A stretch of DNA of 32,330 nt from a virus. Of this stretch, positions 1,083-31,465 are shown one piece after another; the first letter of the stretch is position 1; each line of letters begins with the position of its first letter. The notes below the pieces were generated by a model. It was given only the letters and a program-made list of their open reading frames with translations, was not told where the DNA came from and ran no database searches. Both the position numbers and the translations under genes were made by a program. The stretch lies in the IMG/VR virus record IMGVR_UViG_3300042507_003448, positions 1 to 32,330 of that record; one strand, given 5' to 3'.

Positions 1083-2373
1083 GCAGGTTCAATCCAATGT
1101 CCTTGGCGTTCTGATGAACAAGGACATGAGAGGATATGAAGGCGTTAACAAGCTCAAGGAAGATTACTTCACGGGTGAGTTTAAGCAAGTCTTTCAGGCC
1201 ATAAAATCTTTGTACGCTGAACAACGCCCGGTAGACCCGATTTCGGTAACTAAGAAAATGCGGGAGATGAACTTCATCCCCGATCTGGCATCCTATGCCG
1301 TTTGGGTAGGAGATAGCAATGAATCCGTTGAATACTGGAAGGTCTACAAAGCCGAACTCTTCGACAGCTACAAGTCTAGAAGGCTGGAGAAAATAAAACA
1401 AGAACTTGCCATCGAGTTTGATATTCAGAAAGCATTTGAGCAGTTCATCGAACTCAACGGAGAGGATGAAGATGCCAAGTCCTACAACGCACATGAAGCA
1501 GCCGTTCAGCTGGCGACTAAGATGATCCGCATTAAGGATGGCCAAGAGAAGGTTGTTCTCACACCTACATACCTGCGTCCACTCGATAAGATTGTCGCGG
1601 GGTTCACCCGACCCGACCTCATCCTCCTTGGTGGCAGACCTGCACACGGCAAGACAACCCTTGCTATGCAGATAGCCCTGAATATGGCGTTCAGCGGACA
1701 CTCCATTGGGTTCATCACTATGGAGATGAGCAGAGAGCAACTGATGGGCAGGTTACTCTCCAACTTATCTTCGGTGAACAGCTTTAAGTTCAACGATGTC
1801 GATAAGGATATGTCCATTGATGAGGTTAATCAAATCGGCAGGACCGCAGATAGGCTGAAAGGCAAAAACCTCTTCATCGCTGATATTCCCCACGCTACCG
1901 CACAAACGATAGAGGCAGAAGTAGTCCGCCTAAAGCGACAGTTCGGCATCGAAGGTATCTTCATCGACTACCTCCAACTGGTCAGCCCGGTCAAGGAAGA
2001 TTCAGGGCGAAGCAAGGTCGAACAGGTAACGAACATTTCGAAGCATTTTAAGGCGATAAGTAAAAGACACAACATTTGGGTGTGTGTAATATCATCTTTA
2101 AGCAGAGATAGCGAGAAACGCACGGATAAACGCCCCTACACGAGTGATTTGAGGGAGAGCGGTCAGTTGGAGTACGATGCGGATAAAATCATCTTCGTTC
2201 ACCGCCCTGTTGCATATATGAATCAGGATGATCCCGACTATTCGAAGGTTGAGAACATCATCGAGATTTTGGTTCGCAAGAATCGTTCGGGAGAAACAGG
2301 AACGGCTATTGCCAATGCCGACCTGCGCTACACAAGAATTACTGAATTTGATGGACAATCAACCCCCTTCTAA
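1069..2373 (+). CDS. dnaB: Replicative DNA helicase, DnaB family
   Basis: This is the hexameric 5'-3' helicase that unwinds DNA at the phage fork. ATG 1069 gives 434 residues and begins MQYIEQVQSNVLG, as DnaB N-terminal domains do. The frame stays open upstream, but that part overlaps the initiator gene. Residues 1-100 match the DnaB N-terminal domain. The RecA-like domain has Walker A GGRPAHGKTT at 188-197, where Ala-His replaces the usual Gly-Met, Walker B IFIDYLQL with Asp near 300, then SSLSRDSEKR and the DLRESGQLEYDAD segment with its arginine finger region. It is a little shorter than bacterial DnaB (about 450-470). It starts 14 nt inside the previous gene and ends 3 nt before the next. 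Confidence 0.95.
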   Translation: MQYIEQVQSNVLGVLMNKDMRGYEGVNKLKEDYFTGEFKQVFQAIKSLYAEQRPVDPISVTKKMREMNFIPDLASYAVWVGDSNESVEYWKVYKAELFDSYKSRRLEKIKQELAIEFDIQKAFEQFIELNGEDEDAKSYNAHEAAVQLATKMIRIKDGQEKVVLTPTYLRPLDKIVAGFTRPDLILLGGRPAHGKTTLAMQIALNMAFSGHSIGFITMEMSREQLMGRLLSNLSSVNSFKFNDVDKDMSIDEVNQIGRTADRLKGKNLFIADIPHATAQTIEAEVVRLKRQFGIEGIFIDYLQLVSPVKEDSGRSKVEQVTNISKHFKAISKRHNIWVCVISSLSRDSEKRTDKRPYTSDLRESGQLEYDADKIIFVHRPVAYMNQDDPDYSKVENIIEILVRKNRSGETGTAIANADLRYTRITEFDGQSTPF

Positions 2374-2376
2374 AAA

Positions 2377-2835
2377 ATGGTATCAGAAAGAAGCCTCAAG
2401 ACGATGGATGTCATCGTAGAAACGATAGCCCACAAGATGGGTATTGAACGAAAGGATATATTCGATGGCTCTCGTAGGAGAGGGATAATCGAAGCCCGAA
2501 GGATGGCAATGGCACTCTGCCGAACCTACACCAAATGCACCCTGCAACAAATAGCCTACTACTTCGGGAAGCTCGACCACACAACAGTAATCCACAATGT
2601 AGCCAGGCACGATGAAATCCTAAGCTGTGAAAAAGCCTACCGGGAGATAGTCAAAGAGATATGCGAGGCACTGGAAGTTAGTATAGATAAAGTTATATTA
2701 TTACCGCACGGCTATACATTAGCGAAGAATGGTGAACTTTACGGCTTCTTCCGCTCTAAGTTCAAGGCCATAGCCTACGCTACGGAAAATAATATGGAGG
2801 TAGTTGAAATAAACCCAATCAAATGGCAATTCTAA
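2377..2835 (+). CDS. Stand-alone DnaA domain IV-like DNA-binding protein
   Basis: At 152 residues it carries only the DNA-binding end of the initiator DnaA. Residues 34-80 hold the helix-turn-helix signature: IIEARRMAMALCRTYTKCTL, then IAYYFGKLDHTTVIHN, where the DHTTV loop in DnaA reads the DnaA box. The AAA+ ATPase domain is absent. The C-terminal 55 residues are an unknown extension ending in IKWQF. Beside DnaB and an initiator-like gene, it probably binds phage or host DnaA-box-like sites to help load the helicase or to redirect host replication. It overlaps the next gene by 13 nt. Confidence 0.85.
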   Translation: MVSERSLKTMDVIVETIAHKMGIERKDIFDGSRRRGIIEARRMAMALCRTYTKCTLQQIAYYFGKLDHTTVIHNVARHDEILSCEKAYREIVKEICEALEVSIDKVILLPHGYTLAKNGELYGFFRSKFKAIAYATENNMEVVEINPIKWQF

Positions 2836-3113
2836 GCGAAGCGATACTTAGGTGGTTGAATACGATGCCCGACTTAATCCACAAAGCGGATTTGATGGAT
2901 AAGCTTAGGTATATGGACACAATCCACCGCAAGAACATCATCAGAGCCTACAACGATGGATGGCACAACTACATCCACAAGAAAAGATGGAACTGGAAAG
3001 GAGATGAGTATTACGAAAGGTACTACGGCATCTACGACAAGACCATCACCAAGCGCACCCTTCAAACTTTTCATAATGTTCGTAAAAAACCCAAACCAAA
3101 AACAAATGAGTGA
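2823..3113 (+). CDS. Hypothetical protein, 96 aa, basic and aromatic
   Basis: It starts at ATG 2823, overlapping the previous gene by 13 nt, and ends in ATGAGTGA shared with the next. It is rich in Lys, Tyr and Trp (NYIHKKRWNWKGDEYYERYYGIYDK) with a basic tail (RKKPKPKTNE), which suits nucleic acid binding, but no family is recognised. Its overlap on both sides places it in the replication operon. Confidence 0.65.
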   Translation: MAILSEAILRWLNTMPDLIHKADLMDKLRYMDTIHRKNIIRAYNDGWHNYIHKKRWNWKGDEYYERYYGIYDKTITKRTLQTFHNVRKKPKPKTNE

Positions 3114-3381
3114 AAGACCAAAGCCGGTATATGCCAAGGGCATCTACCTCACCGAGAAAGCCGCAGGCGGCAAAGAGATGATTGAAATCTCCTTTAATGT
3201 TGATAGCTTTACGCAGTTCCTGCAAGAGCATAGAAACGAAAAAGGATATGTCAAAATTAGCTGCTGGCCAAAAGGAATCCCCGATAACTTCGGCTCCCAC
3301 AACTGCACCCTCAACACCTGGAAGCCAAAGCCGCAGGCGGCTGCCCCATCATCTTCGGGGAAGGACGACCTCCCATTCTAA
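3106..3381 (+). CDS. SSB-like small protein with a DDLPF acidic tail
   Basis: It is 91 residues from ATG 3106; the frame is open further upstream but overlaps the preceding gene. The body (residues 8-70) looks like a small beta-rich fold (KEMIEISFNVDSFTQFLQ, then GYVKISCWPKGI). The last residues are a Pro/Ala/Ser linker followed by SSGKDDLPF. An acidic D-D-(I/L)-P-F tip is the protein-interaction tail of bacterial single-stranded DNA-binding proteins and of several phage SSBs. The inferred role is coating single-stranded DNA at the fork and recruiting partners through the tail. The body does not show an obvious bacterial SSB OB-fold signature. Confidence 0.6.
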   Translation: MSERPKPVYAKGIYLTEKAAGGKEMIEISFNVDSFTQFLQEHRNEKGYVKISCWPKGIPDNFGSHNCTLNTWKPKPQAAAPSSSGKDDLPF

Positions 3382-3733
3382 GTTTGGAAATAAGAAGATA
3401 GTCGAGGCTGATGGCACTAAATCTGATAGCAAATTAGAGTCATATTTGAAGGGGCTACTCGAAATGTTTAAGATTCCGTACACTCAGCAGGTTAGCCATG
3501 TTCTCATGCCCTCATTTCGCTATAAAGGAGAGTTGATTAGGCAGATTGCCTATCGACTTGACTTTGTGGTGGCGGGCAAGTGGGCAGTTGAAACAAAGGG
3601 ATTCTTCACTCCCGATGGTAAGATGAAGTGGAAGATGTTTCTTCACCAATATGGGGGGCAGTATGAACACTGCTTCGTGCTGAAGAACAAAAGAGAGTGC
3701 GATAGTTTTGTGAGCAACCTTTTAACTAAGTAA
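3248..3733 (+). CDS. DUF1064-type phage endonuclease-like protein; start uncertain
   Basis: The conserved region starts at 3380 (SKFGNKKIVEADGTKSDSKL) and continues with SHVLMPSFRYKGELIRQIAY, LDFVVAGKWAVETKGFFTPD and HCFVLKNK. This is the pattern of DUF1064 proteins, predicted PD-(D/E)xK-like nucleases; the D, E and K of LDFVV...VETKG fit a nuclease core. The family normally begins a few residues before the N-G-N-K-K segment, but no ATG exists there. The nearest in-frame ATG is 3248, which gives 161 residues and overlaps the SSB-like gene by 134 nt with a low-complexity S/T/P/R N-terminus. A +1 shift from the SSB-like frame or a non-AUG start are alternatives. Confidence 0.7.
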   Translation: MSKLAAGQKESPITSAPTTAPSTPGSQSRRRLPHHLRGRTTSHSKFGNKKIVEADGTKSDSKLESYLKGLLEMFKIPYTQQVSHVLMPSFRYKGELIRQIAYRLDFVVAGKWAVETKGFFTPDGKMKWKMFLHQYGGQYEHCFVLKNKRECDSFVSNLLTK

Positions 3734-3734
3734 A

Positions 3735-4004
3735 ATGCCTGAATTTAGAGGGTGGACAATCACCCGTTCAACTGCAAAAGGGAAGAAATACACCGCCTCA
3801 AAGGGTGATAAGACCGTTCATTTTGGGGCGCAGGGGTACACTATTTCTCCTGGAACTCCGAAGGGAGATAACTACTGCTCTCGTTCCAATGGGATTAAGT
3901 CGGAAACCCATTCTCCGAATTGGTTTGCCCGTGCCCTTTGGTCTTGCAGGGGTGCTAAGAGTGCCGATAAACGCCCGTTCTTCGGGGAAATAGAACTGCC
4001 ATAG
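3735..4004 (+). CDS. Conserved phage protein of unknown function, 89 aa
   Basis: It starts one base after the nuclease stop. The N-terminal part is basic (TRSTAKGKKYTASKGDKTVHFG). The C-terminal part, with SPNWFARALWSCRGAKS and KRPFFGE, resembles small phage proteins that carry a GKKY..HFG then SPN(W/Y)..R.LW pattern (compare DUF5754-like proteins). No enzymatic motif is visible. It is co-transcribed with the nuclease and the ParB-like gene. Confidence 0.6.
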   Translation: MPEFRGWTITRSTAKGKKYTASKGDKTVHFGAQGYTISPGTPKGDNYCSRSNGIKSETHSPNWFARALWSCRGAKSADKRPFFGEIELP

Positions 4005-29472: not shown

Positions 29473-29800
29473 AAAATAATGTAAAGGATACGCAATCAAC
29501 ATCATCGCCAGTTCCGGGCTGGCCAAACTCCAAGTCGTCATCAACATTGCAGGTTTCATCAGCATGAACAGTAACCTCGTATGTTCTATTCGGTGAAAAT
29601 GTATATTGGTCAATAGCAATCGTCAGCTCACCCAATCCACTCGCAGTAACCGTTTGTTGGGTATAGCGGTTCAGTGTAAGGTCGAGGATGCGAACAAGAT
29701 AGTCGGTAGCAGGTGTGAGCCCCTCAGCAACAGTTATTTCGGCACAACAAATGTCGTAAGAGCCTATGGAGGGGCAGTTTGTACATTCAAGACAGCTCAT
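29462..29800 (-). CDS. Hypothetical small beta-rich protein with a Cys-rich N-terminus, 112 aa
   Basis: It begins MSCLECTNCPSIGSYDICCAE with five cysteines in the first 19 residues, then an Ig-like or fibronectin-like beta pattern (TPATDYLVRILDLTLNRY; SPNRTYEVTVHADETC). It overlaps the terminase end by ATGA. It may be a head or tail decoration protein, or a tail tube partner. No family is assigned. Confidence 0.6.
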   Translation of the reverse strand: MSCLECTNCPSIGSYDICCAEITVAEGLTPATDYLVRILDLTLNRYTQQTVTASGLGELTIAIDQYTFSPNRTYEVTVHADETCNVDDDLEFGQPGTGDDVDCVSFTLFYAD

Positions 29801-31137
29801 AATGGTATGTTTTTATATCCGCTTTTTTTCAGGTGGTAAATATACCACTCCCCCAAGAAGGTGTGGCATATGTAGCGCACGCAATCTCCGTGATCGGCTA
29901 GCTGAGTTATAATATTCCTATTCCTTTTAATTATATTCCCCATAGCATCGCATTTGAGCATCCTCAAGTCCCTCGAAGTGTTGGGGCAGCTCTTAGGATT
30001 CACCTTGAAGTCAGGGTAGTGCCTTAGAATGTAGTTGCACTCGGCACGGGAGTTCTCGTGCTTAGGGTTGTCCTGAACGCGGATTTGCTTCCCCGATAGT
30101 TTAAGCCCACGAGCTAACTGCTCATAGTAGTTAGCATTATCCCTCTGAGATAAATCACCCCTCTTGCCCATAGCATCACCCGTTATCTGACACATCGGAA
30201 GGTATGGCTCATATCTCTCCTTAATCGTGTCTATCATCTTTGGTATAGAGCCATCGGGAACGGAGAACTCATCGACTATATGGAAGTGTTCGCCATTGTC
30301 ATCCTTCCACTTGTGGGCAACAATGCCAGCAAACGGCTGTAAGTTGAAGTCGAAGGCAAATAAAATCGGCAGGTTCGGGTTGAAAAACGCGCCCTTATCC
30401 TCATGTTCTTTTGGCTCAAATGCCGTGAAAAATGGGTTTTCAGGCTTTTCCTGAACCTCCCAGTCGCCCTCAACGAAACGCAGGTACTCATATTCAGGCA
30501 TATTGGCCTTCAGTGAGTTTAGGTAGTCATCAGGGATGTATGGGTTATCCGTAATCTTTGATGGAATGTATGCCCAGGTTTCAGGGAGAGTGCCCTTAAT
30601 CCACCTGTCATAAACCTCCTCCTTCACCCAATTATTCGCAGGGTTGCACGTTCCCAATACTACAATAGGAGGGCGACCTTCAGCGTTGTTCCATGAGCCC
30701 GAGCGTTCAAGCATCTTGTAAAGGGTAGCCTCCTGGCACTCGTTAATCTCATCAATGCCGCCTCCGTTTATCTCCAAGCCCTTAAACCTATCTAAGTCTT
30801 TATCGGTGTCGTAGTTCTCGCCCATAAAGATGAGTTCAGAGCCATTGCTAAAGGTCAATATTAAAGACTGCTTATCGTAGTTTGATATGTAAGGCCTCAG
30901 CCCATCATTTAGTATTGAGTTTAGCGTTATGAGTGTTGTGCGTTCTAAAGTAGGGCGAGAGGCTCGTACAATACACCATCTTGACTTAGGGTATTTAGAG
31001 CAAAGAGATATGAAGGTTAGAAGAAGCCAATAAGTTTTACCCCCTCGTCATCGGATGGCACCACCGAAGAGAATGAACTGCTTCTCTCCAGATAGTGCCA
31101 TCCTATAGGCCTCCGTTTGTTTTTTAGTTAGTTTCAT
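29797..31137 (-). CDS. terL: Large terminase subunit, interrupted by an in-frame TGA in the Walker A loop
   Basis: The full frame from ATG 31137 to 29797 is 447 codons with one internal TGA at codon 30. It encodes the DNA packaging motor. Read past the stop, the parts are: FILFGGAIR (21-29), stop, RGGKTYW (31-37); a WCIVRASRPTLERTT segment; Walker B GGGIDEINE with Asp near 129; coupling motif LGTCNPANNWV; nuclease domain with FAFDFN (Asp near 263), ITGDAMGK and ADHGDCVRY as the acidic triad. Everything after the stop looks intact. Deleting TGACGA gives GAIRGGKT, a perfect P-loop. No start codon after the stop would keep the P-loop lysine. TerL overlaps TerS by 14 nt. Confidence 0.85.
31045..31053 (-). 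other. CGA-TGA-CGA element in the terminase P-loop
   Basis: On the minus strand the codons are ATC CGA TGA CGA GGG GGT AAA ACT. The stop is flanked by two identical CGA codons. Skipping TGACGA, by hopping from the first CGA to the second, yields I-R-G-G-K-T in frame. T4 gene 60 uses the same logic: take-off codon, stop next to it, matching landing codon. A 6-base insertion mutation or assembly artefact is the plain alternative. Confidence 0.6.
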
Positions 31138-31465
31138 TAGATTCCTGGTTTTCAGTTTCGTCTTTTTCTCCTTCCGTAAGCTCTAAGACAAATGGCTTGG
31201 AGTCGGATTCCTGAACCTGTGCTTGTGGCTTGCCATACATATAAGCCATAATCAACTCAATGGCTCGTAGATTTCCCTGGATCCCCATAGTAACGAGGCG
31301 GGCAACTAAGCCTTCGGCACGGGTTATGCCGTTAATCTCCTTCGAGAGTTCGGTTTCAAGTATCTTTCTAACGTTACTCCTCCTAAGATCCGCAGGCTTA
31401 ACCTGCCCATCGGGCTTGTTCAGAGGAATGAACGGAAGCCTTTTCTTAATTTCGGTATCCGACAT
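31124..31465 (-). CDS. terS: Probable small terminase subunit
   Basis: It is 113 residues directly upstream of the large terminase. It begins MSDTEIKKRLPFIPLNKPDG. The helical core VRKILETELSKEING, then ARLVTMGIQGNLRAIELIMA and YMYGKPQ is typical of small phage proteins that precede TerL and of DUF5681-like terminase-linked proteins. The C-terminal tail is acidic (TEGEKDETENQESNETN). It would recognise phage DNA and regulate the motor. The promoter box lies 4 nt before the ATG. Confidence 0.65.
   Translation of the reverse strand: MSDTEIKKRLPFIPLNKPDGQVKPADLRRSNVRKILETELSKEINGITRAEGLVARLVTMGIQGNLRAIELIMAYMYGKPQAQVQESDSKPFVLELTEGEKDETENQESNETN

What the first reader, a model, noticed from the sequence alone, without database searches (positions are those of the whole stretch)
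31045..31053. Stop codon in the Walker A loop of the large terminase, flanked by identical CGA codons: mini-bypass, or a disabled motor
Seen: the terminase frame (31137 to 29797) is open except for TGA at 31048-31050, giving GGAIR-stop-RGGKT. Deleting exactly six bases, TGACGA, restores GAIRGGKT, and the rest of the ATPase and nuclease is intact. The codon before and the codon after the stop are both CGA, so a ribosome that detaches at the first and re-pairs at the second would make the canonical P-loop. Known: T4 gene 60 bypassing uses a take-off codon followed at once by a stop and an identical landing codon. Inference: this could be a very short bypass element regulating the packaging motor. 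Alternatives are a 6-bp insertion (CATC-C-GATG is a small quasi-palindrome that could have templated it), a defective phage, a mixed population, or an assembly error. Read-through would insert two residues into the loop and lose the first P-loop Gly spacing, so simple suppression is unlikely to restore function. A reassigned TGA is excluded by its use as stop elsewhere.
Basis: partly seen in the sequence, partly recalled or inferred. Interest (0 to 1): 0.85.

Follow-up and report, generated by a model that had tools for sequence, protein, structure and literature searches.

The report
Ribosome stop-hop in phage packaging motor
This phage's DNA-packaging motor gene carries a stop codon inside its ATP-binding loop, and comparison with about a hundred related phage sequences indicates that ribosomes hop over it; the insert looks like the smallest version of a mobile, homing-endonuclease-linked element that lands in this essential site and is made harmless during translation.

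Summary
It is not an error. The same interruption occurs in 27 F1 contigs of IMG/VR, counting the window's own, in several lineages, with TGA or TAG. TerL families F2, F3 and F4 carry inserts at the same P-loop site with gaps of 3, 5, 7, 8, 15, 18, 36, 37 or 38 nt, several out of frame. Joining the codons on either side restores the canonical P-loop every time but one. Those codons are CGN/CGN or GGY/GGY. Downstream sequence is under strong purifying selection (dN/dS about 0.06, as in intact alleles). Gap alleles carry a covarying stem-loop ending 12 nt before take-off. Long gaps hold a covarying GNRA hairpin. A NUMOD4/HNH homing-endonuclease gene precedes terL in 29 of 88 gap alleles and 0 of 129 intact ones. 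In three contigs the endonuclease plus a recoded second copy of the terL 5' end sits inside the resident P-loop. Best explanation: translational bypassing, here a natural in-frame 'stop hop', neutralising a homing-endonuclease-linked insertion, as in T4 gene 60/MobA but at terL and in many lineages. A regulatory role is unsupported. No wet-lab proof exists.

The parts
31051..31137 (-). ORF1: recoded 5' part of terL, 29 codons, ATG at 31137, last codon is the take-off codon
   Evidence: in F2 and F3 gap3/hairpin alleles ORF1 is 96-99% identical while flanks are 48-64% (upstream) and 73-83% (downstream); F1 gap ORF1 is 83% against 76% in intact alleles
31066..31089 (-). 5' stem-loop: 8-bp stem GGAGAGAA/TTCTCTTC (31089-31082 with 31073-31066), 8-nt loop, ending 12 nt before the take-off codon
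   Evidence: perfect in 15/18 gap against 1/36 intact segments; covariation 0.369 against shuffled 0.168 (0/500)
31051..31053 (-). take-off codon CGA (Arg, last residue of ORF1)
31048..31050 (-). coding gap: UGA stop (3 nt), followed by C
   Evidence: TAG in L014/L015/L019, longer gaps in relatives
31045..31047 (-). landing codon CGA (pairs with peptidyl-tRNA, inferred not decoded)
   Evidence: CGN in 71/71 Arg-type gap alleles, against 63/79 CGN and 16/79 AGR at this Arg in intact alleles
29797..31044 (-). ORF2: body of TerL (resume codon GGG at 31044-31042; GGKT of Walker A, ATPase, nuclease); predicted bypass product 444 aa
   Evidence: Pfam Terminase_6N, PHROG 979; dN/dS about 0.07 in F1 gap alleles
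31124..31465 (-). small gene directly upstream with a weak DUF5681 match, probable small terminase; in HNH-bearing relatives the HNH gene lies between the equivalent gene and ORF1

Best explanation
The six extra bases are the smallest form of a translational bypassing element. [quoted passage not shown] A 5' mRNA stem-loop just outside the mRNA exit (and perhaps the nascent peptide) promotes release of the codon-anticodon pair. The tRNA re-pairs with the second CGA six nucleotides on, and decoding resumes at GGG. This yields an intact P-loop (FGGAIRGGKT) and a 444-residue TerL. The element arose as part of a mobile cassette: an HNH homing endonuclease plus a recoded copy of the terL 5' end inserted in the P-loop codons. 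The non-coding gap keeps the rebuilt gene from being a cleavage site again, and bypassing neutralises it. The window keeps recoded ORF1 and gap without the endonuclease. Shown: conservation, codon matching, out-of-frame and long gaps, covarying stem-loops, purifying selection, endonuclease linkage and insertion into the P-loop. Inferred: the hop itself, the role of the stem-loop, and protection from cleavage.
For: Recurs in several F1 lineages with TGA or TAG, and in TerL families F2 and F3. Gap series 3, 5, 7, 8, 15, 18, 36, 37, 38 nt; joining take-off and landing codons restores the P-loop each time but one; 5-, 7-, 8-, 37- and 38-nt gaps change frame, so read-through cannot serve them. Codon matching: CGN/CGN in 71/71, AGR never (16/79 in intact; p=1.8e-5); GGY/GGY in 27/28. 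Median dN/dS 0.04-0.09 in gap alleles, 0.05-0.11 in intact; same-type gaps persist at dS 1.7-2.0. 5' stem-loop and GNRA gap hairpin (0.640 vs 0.255, 0/500) covary. Patchy phylogeny, at least 15 changes in F1/F1b/F2. HNH upstream in 29/88 gap vs 0/129 intact alleles (p=1.7e-13). In L035, L049 and L071 the cassette interrupts the resident P-loop. Same plan as T4 gene 60 (PMC5009743, PMC11194080, PMC3014915).
Against: No protein, ribosome-profiling or reporter data. 20 of 99 gap alleles (long-gap types) start the gap with TGG or TTT rather than a stop. CGG to CGA in 13 alleles needs third-base tolerance, or a tRNA-Arg reading both. One contig (L141/L200) has landing codon AGC. The window record has no HNH gene, so its own element's mobile origin is inferred from relatives.
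Confidence: 0.88

Rival explanations
1. Stop-codon read-through or suppression: UGA is decoded, making a TerL with two extra residues (GGAIR-x-RGGKT).
For: The 3-nt variants are in frame, and UGA-C is a leaky context (general knowledge).
Against: TGA and TAG both serve. Gaps of 5, 7, 8, 37 and 38 nt at the same site are out of frame, and 36-nt gaps of F2 hold more than one stop. Two extra residues disrupt GxxxxGKT. Gap3 and hairpin alleles share the same 5' stem-loop. Read-through does not explain why take-off and landing codons avoid AGR.
Confidence: 0.03
2. A disabling mutation, defective phage, mixed population or assembly error.
For: A stop in an essential motif usually means loss of function.
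Against: Many independent assemblies carry it. dN/dS is about 0.06 with persistence to dS near 2. Only one TerL per record, so no backup copy in the record. Conserved covarying RNA structures.
Confidence: 0.02
3. RNA-level removal of the insert (splicing or editing) rather than ribosome bypassing.
For: Would give the same protein; long gaps contain hairpins.
Against: No mechanism known to me removes inserts of 5 to 10 nt. No Rfam intron match. Take-off and landing codons vary in the third base but stay in one codon box, which suits tRNA re-pairing rather than a splice or target-site repeat.
Confidence: 0.04
4. ORF1 and ORF2 are made as separate polypeptides that assemble (split TerL, by re-initiation).
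For: T4 gp39/gp60 and other split phage genes assemble in trans (PMC2988022).
Against: The split falls inside the P-loop; ORF2 has no start codon at the junction; landing-codon identity would be unexplained.
Confidence: 0.02
5. Bypassing is real but kept for regulation of TerL dosage rather than as neutralisation of a mobile insert.
For: Some alleles, including the window, keep the gap without an HNH gene; TerL is needed in few copies (general knowledge).
Against: Patchy presence or absence among close relatives, position at the catalytic P-loop, and HNH linkage fit a mobile insert better. No regulatory signal was found.
Confidence: 0.1

Closest known systems
Bacteriophage T4 gene 60 programmed translational bypassing with the mobA/60.1 insertion
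   Same: Take-off codon followed by a stop, matched landing codon, 5' stem-loop, gap hairpin with tetraloop, adjacent HNH homing endonuclease, active-site position (TDADHDG motif), gap proposed to protect from the nuclease (PMC5009743, PMC11194080, PMC3014915)
   Different: Different gene (TerL P-loop); gaps of 3-38 nt instead of 47-50; Arg CGN or Gly GGY codons; several TerL families and patchy distribution; the complete cassette carries a recoded second copy of the 5' end inside the host gene; take-off stem-loop not tested
Synthetic in-frame 'stop hops' in E. coli (Weiss et al. 1987, as reviewed in PMC5009743)
   Same: Exactly the 9-nt arrangement: codon, stop, same codon
   Different: Those were artificial; the 2016 review states that no natural in-frame stop hop was known
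[quoted passage not shown]
   Same: Terminase large subunit, and the break lies in the Walker A region (KGWG then AYSGKD)
   Different: Shift to the +1 frame at a UUA codon, unrelated sequence, proposed link to UUA decoding; no HNH-bypass cassette shown
Mitochondrial byp elements of Magnusiomyces capitatus
   Same: Short blocks skipped in translation in many places
   Different: Mitochondrial and apparently independent of mRNA context (PMC5009743); no comparison of sequences was made here
[quoted passage not shown]
   Same: HNH gene next to a structural gene whose expression may need bypassing (PMC4351075)
   Different: Different gene; mechanism unresolved

Membership tests
Programmed translational bypassing (T4 gene 60 type) | Two ORFs separated by a non-coding gap whose removal restores a conserved protein | tested here: met
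[quoted passage not shown]
   Window: CGA and CGA; same codon box in 98/99 alleles; CGG to CGA in 13 is a third-base mismatch; one AGC exception
Programmed translational bypassing (T4 gene 60 type) | Stop codon immediately 3' of take-off | tested here: met
   Met in the window (TGA) and in 79/99 alleles; not in 20/99, which start with TGG or TTT
Programmed translational bypassing (T4 gene 60 type) | 5' stem-loop upstream of take-off | tested here: met
   Window and F1/F1b; F3 gap3 alleles -10.3 against -0.7 kcal/mol in intact; weak or variable in F2
Programmed translational bypassing (T4 gene 60 type) | Hairpin with tetraloop in the gap | tested here: not met
   Impossible in the 3-nt gap of the window; met in the 36-38 nt relatives
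Programmed translational bypassing (T4 gene 60 type) | Nascent-peptide signal | not testable with these tools
   ORF1 is highly conserved in gap alleles but peptide and RNA constraints cannot be separated
Programmed translational bypassing (T4 gene 60 type) | Experimentally shown fusion protein | not testable with these tools
   no proteomics or reporter data
Mobile homing-endonuclease and bypass cassette (MobA/gene 60 type) | Linked homing endonuclease gene | tested here: inconclusive
   Absent from the window record (HNH_3 search); present beside terL in 29/88 gap alleles, 0/129 intact
Mobile homing-endonuclease and bypass cassette (MobA/gene 60 type) | Insertion at a conserved active-site motif of an essential gene | tested here: met
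   Walker A of TerL; cassette caught inside the resident P-loop in L035, L049, L071
Mobile homing-endonuclease and bypass cassette (MobA/gene 60 type) | Endonuclease cleaves gap-less but not gap-bearing DNA | not testable with these tools
   needs enzyme assay
Stop-codon read-through | Downstream ORF in frame with the stop in all orthologous cases | tested here: not met
   5-, 7-, 8-, 37- and 38-nt gaps

The most novel reading that the evidence does not exclude
A class of mobile elements, spread over several phage TerL families, in which an HNH homing endonuclease inserts into the catalytic P-loop of an essential gene and brings a recoded copy of the gene's 5' end plus a ribosome-bypass signal, so that the interrupted gene is rebuilt and immune to recutting. 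The minimal derivative is a natural in-frame hop over a single stop codon.
Probability: 0.65. Interest if true: 0.96.

Novelty: new variant of a known kind. Interest (0 to 1): 0.93.

Why it matters
T4 gene 60 has long been the main demonstrated phage case of bypassing, and the 2016 review records no natural in-frame stop hop (PMC5009743). Here are about 99 distinct natural alleles with graded gaps from 3 to 38 nt, with intact sister genes as controls. That makes testable which signals ribosomes need to hop, how gaps shrink, and whether bypassing evolves as protection around homing endonucleases. It also means such terminase genes may be wrongly called pseudogenes or truncated.

Tried and rejected
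Genome-contig scan for the P-loop stop gave only chance matches outside terminases. My first general viral pattern was one base short and wasted a scan. INPHARED searches found no close named phage and no named phage with a gap among those inspected: phage 11b and phi10:1 P-loops were read and are intact; PaV-LD, CL131, DC33, BS-TP1 and P12002L were judged by their annotated continuous CDS only. Rfam search found no intron. Variable-gap scan hits such as L299, L300, L345, L351 and L373 are low-complexity or non-terminase matches and were dropped. The 360-bp insert in L020 and L081 looks like an intein, unrelated to the finding. Second TerL copy: none in the 12 records tested.

Full report
OBSERVATION. 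The terminase frame on the minus strand, 31137 to 29797, is open except for TGA at 31050-31048. It reads MKLTKKQTEAYRMALSGEKQFILFGGAIR-stop-RGGKTYWLLL, and both codons next to the stop are CGA. The downstream part matches Pfam Terminase_6N and PHROG 979, terminase large subunit. The rest of the record is an ordinary phage genome with portal, tape measure, tail, DnaB-like helicase and ParB-like genes.

NOT UNIQUE. A search of IMG/VR with the downstream protein returned 80 loci. Aligning the P-loops shows two kinds of allele: intact ones, GGAIRGGKT, and ones with exactly six more bases, GGAIR-stop-RGGKT. The interrupted kind occurs in at least four groups: CGA-TGA-CGA (window, L002-L005), CGA-TAG-CGA (L014, L015, L019), CGC-TGA-CGA (L029-L031) and CGG-TGA-CGG/CGA (L035, L038 and others). 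Pattern scans raised the F1 total to 27 contigs including the window, and showed the same arrangement in TerL families with unrelated upstream sequence: F2 (L107, L110-L112; CGC-TGA-CGT) and F3 (L128-L146; GGT-TGA-GGC in FGGGAG-stop-GGGKT). The allele groups are named F1, F1b (F1-like, VIVFGG), F2, F3 and F4 by the sequence around the P-loop.

A SERIES OF GAPS. Relatives of F2 and F3 and a variable-gap scan revealed longer gaps at the same site. In F3: GGT-TGAAG-GGC, GGC-TGAAT-GGT, GGC-TGAATAA-GGT, GGC-TAACCAA-GGC. In F2: CGC-TGACAAA-CGA, CGC-TGACAAAC-CGT and CGT-TAACCCCTTAGTAGAAATATTAAGGGGTAAAAGATA-CGA. In F1b: 36-38 nt gaps such as CGA-TAACCGCCCCTGCTGGAAACGGTGGGGGCAAAGATT-CGC. In F4: 15 and 18 nt. 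Gaps of 5, 7, 8, 37 and 38 nt change the reading frame. In L174, L208 and L211 a simple +1 shift would meet TAA at once. Joining the take-off and landing codons gives the canonical P-loop in every case except one contig (L141/L200, landing codon AGC).

CODON MATCHING. In 71 distinct Arg-type gap alleles both flanking codons are always CGN, never AGG or AGA, although 16 of 79 intact alleles use AGR for this Arg (p=1.8e-5). In 28 Gly-type alleles take-off is always GGT or GGC and landing is GGT or GGC in 27, although intact alleles use GGA or GGG in 28 of 106 codons. The third bases often differ between take-off and landing (CGC/CGT, GGT/GGC). That argues against a simple target-site duplication and for re-pairing of one tRNA. 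CGG to CGA in 13 alleles needs third-base tolerance or a host tRNA that reads both. For the pattern-found subset the codon boxes were partly imposed by the pattern ([CG]GN), but the F1, F2 and F3 alleles found by protein search show the same.

SELECTION. Nei-Gojobori dN/dS downstream of the gap has medians of 0.068 (F1), 0.037 (F1b), 0.089 (F2) and 0.063 (F3) in gap alleles, against 0.053, 0.058, 0.109 and 0.071 in intact ones. Alleles with the same gap type persist to dS of 1.7-2.0 (L038/L049, L136/L137). Twelve records tested each hold a single TerL. The gene is under selection as a whole and has no backup in those records.

RNA STRUCTURE. In F1 and F1b gap alleles, 8 bp of stem and an 8-nt loop end 12 nt before the take-off codon; in the window the arms are 31089-31082 and 31073-31066. 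All eight pairs form in 15 of 18 distinct gap segments and 1 of 36 intact ones. Covariation is 0.369 against 0.168 shuffled (0/500), and the slid controls fall to 0.16 or less. Intact alleles show no excess over the slid versions. Random synonymous codons would give the full stem for the window's peptide in 2.6% of draws. F3 gap3 alleles have a different stem there (-10.3 against -0.7 kcal/mol in intact). Long gaps contain a 10-bp hairpin with a GNRA loop, covarying across F1b and F2 (0.640 against 0.255, 0/500). T4 gene 60 also has a 5' stem-loop and a gap hairpin with a stabilising tetraloop (PMC11194080, PMC3014915).

MOBILITY. On TerL trees gap and intact alleles interleave: 20 changes in F1/F1b/F2 (at least 15 forced by well supported branches) and 12 in F3 (at least 4). 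ORF1 is 99% identical among F3 gap3 alleles whose first 300 nt downstream are 83% and whose 60 nt upstream of the ATG are 57% identical; in F2 hairpin alleles the figures are 98, 73 and 48%. So ORF1 plus gap behaves as a unit. A NUMOD4/HNH_3 endonuclease ORF lies just upstream of terL in 29 of 88 gap alleles and 0 of 129 intact ones (p=1.7e-13). In L035, L049 and L071, all F1 with the TGA stop, the resident terL runs MKLTARQ..QAYK..ALSG.KQFILFGGA, breaks, and is followed by a TATATTTG promoter-like motif (in L035 and L049), the HNH gene, and then a recoded second copy of the terL 5' end with CGG-TGA-CGR joined to GGKT. The relic closely matches the gap-free relatives L039 and L034. That is the cassette inside the P-loop. 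The 29/88 count treats related alleles as separate, so the p-value overstates independence; the association nevertheless recurs in F1, F1b, F2 and F3. HNH genes beside terminases can also be packaging components in other phages (cited in PMC4351075), so the homing role rests on NUMOD4, the restriction to gap alleles and the insertion inside terL.

MECHANISM. The most economical account is translational bypassing of an HNH-linked insertion. Ribosomes leave CGA, skip UGA and re-pair at CGA. The codon-stop-codon arrangement is the synthetic 'stop hop', for which the 2016 review says no natural occurrence was known (PMC5009743). The gap's probable benefit is that it breaks the endonuclease site, as proposed for T4 (same review). 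The hop, the contribution of the stem-loop and the protection from cutting remain inferences. No sign of a role in regulating TerL was found. The window's record lacks the HNH gene, so it is read as a derivative that lost it or received only ORF1 and gap.

KNOWN AND NEW. It works like T4 gene 60. It differs in gene, gap length and breadth, and in carrying a recoded duplicate of the gene's 5' end. The earlier proposed terminase bypass of Streptomyces phage Hau3 also lies in the Walker A region (KGWG/AYSGKD), which suggests that this DNA site is repeatedly hit. Literature was searched only in the open PMC library; subscription papers and preprints were not seen, so novelty is provisional. The nearest named relatives of the F3 TerLs are Flavobacterium, Cellulophaga, Polaribacter and Bacteroides phages; F1 matches named phages only weakly. 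Bacteroidota hosts are therefore likely for F3 and plausible for F1 and F2, but not shown.

Noticed in passing
L020 3001-4608 (also L081, with a frameshift): About 360-bp in-frame insertion near the TerL C-terminus (CFAAGTLISLEKG...ILVHN C) looks like a mini-intein without an endonuclease.
   Followed up: partly
L110, TerL from position 68: TerL with the TGA hop also carries an intein-like insertion in its C-terminal half (CFVGETLIKT...NILVHNC); one essential gene with two different kinds of insert.
   Followed up: no
L382 (phiHau3 2329-3995): The previously proposed terminase bypass of Streptomyces phage Hau3 lies in the Walker A motif; an HNH gene is annotated about 1.4 kb upstream of the terminase (591-905).
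   Followed up: partly
L307 and L371: Fourth TerL family (best named match a cyanophage for L307) with 18- and 15-nt gaps GGT-TTTTAG...-GGT; suggests the phenomenon reaches beyond Bacteroidota phages.
   Followed up: no
L293, L301, L309, L311, L323, L366 and others: 38-nt gaps that begin with TGG, a sense codon, instead of a stop; how the ribosome is stopped there is unexplained.
   Followed up: no
L035 about 600 nt upstream of take-off: Bacteroidota-like promoter motif TATATTTG just before the HNH gene inside the broken resident terL.
   Followed up: no
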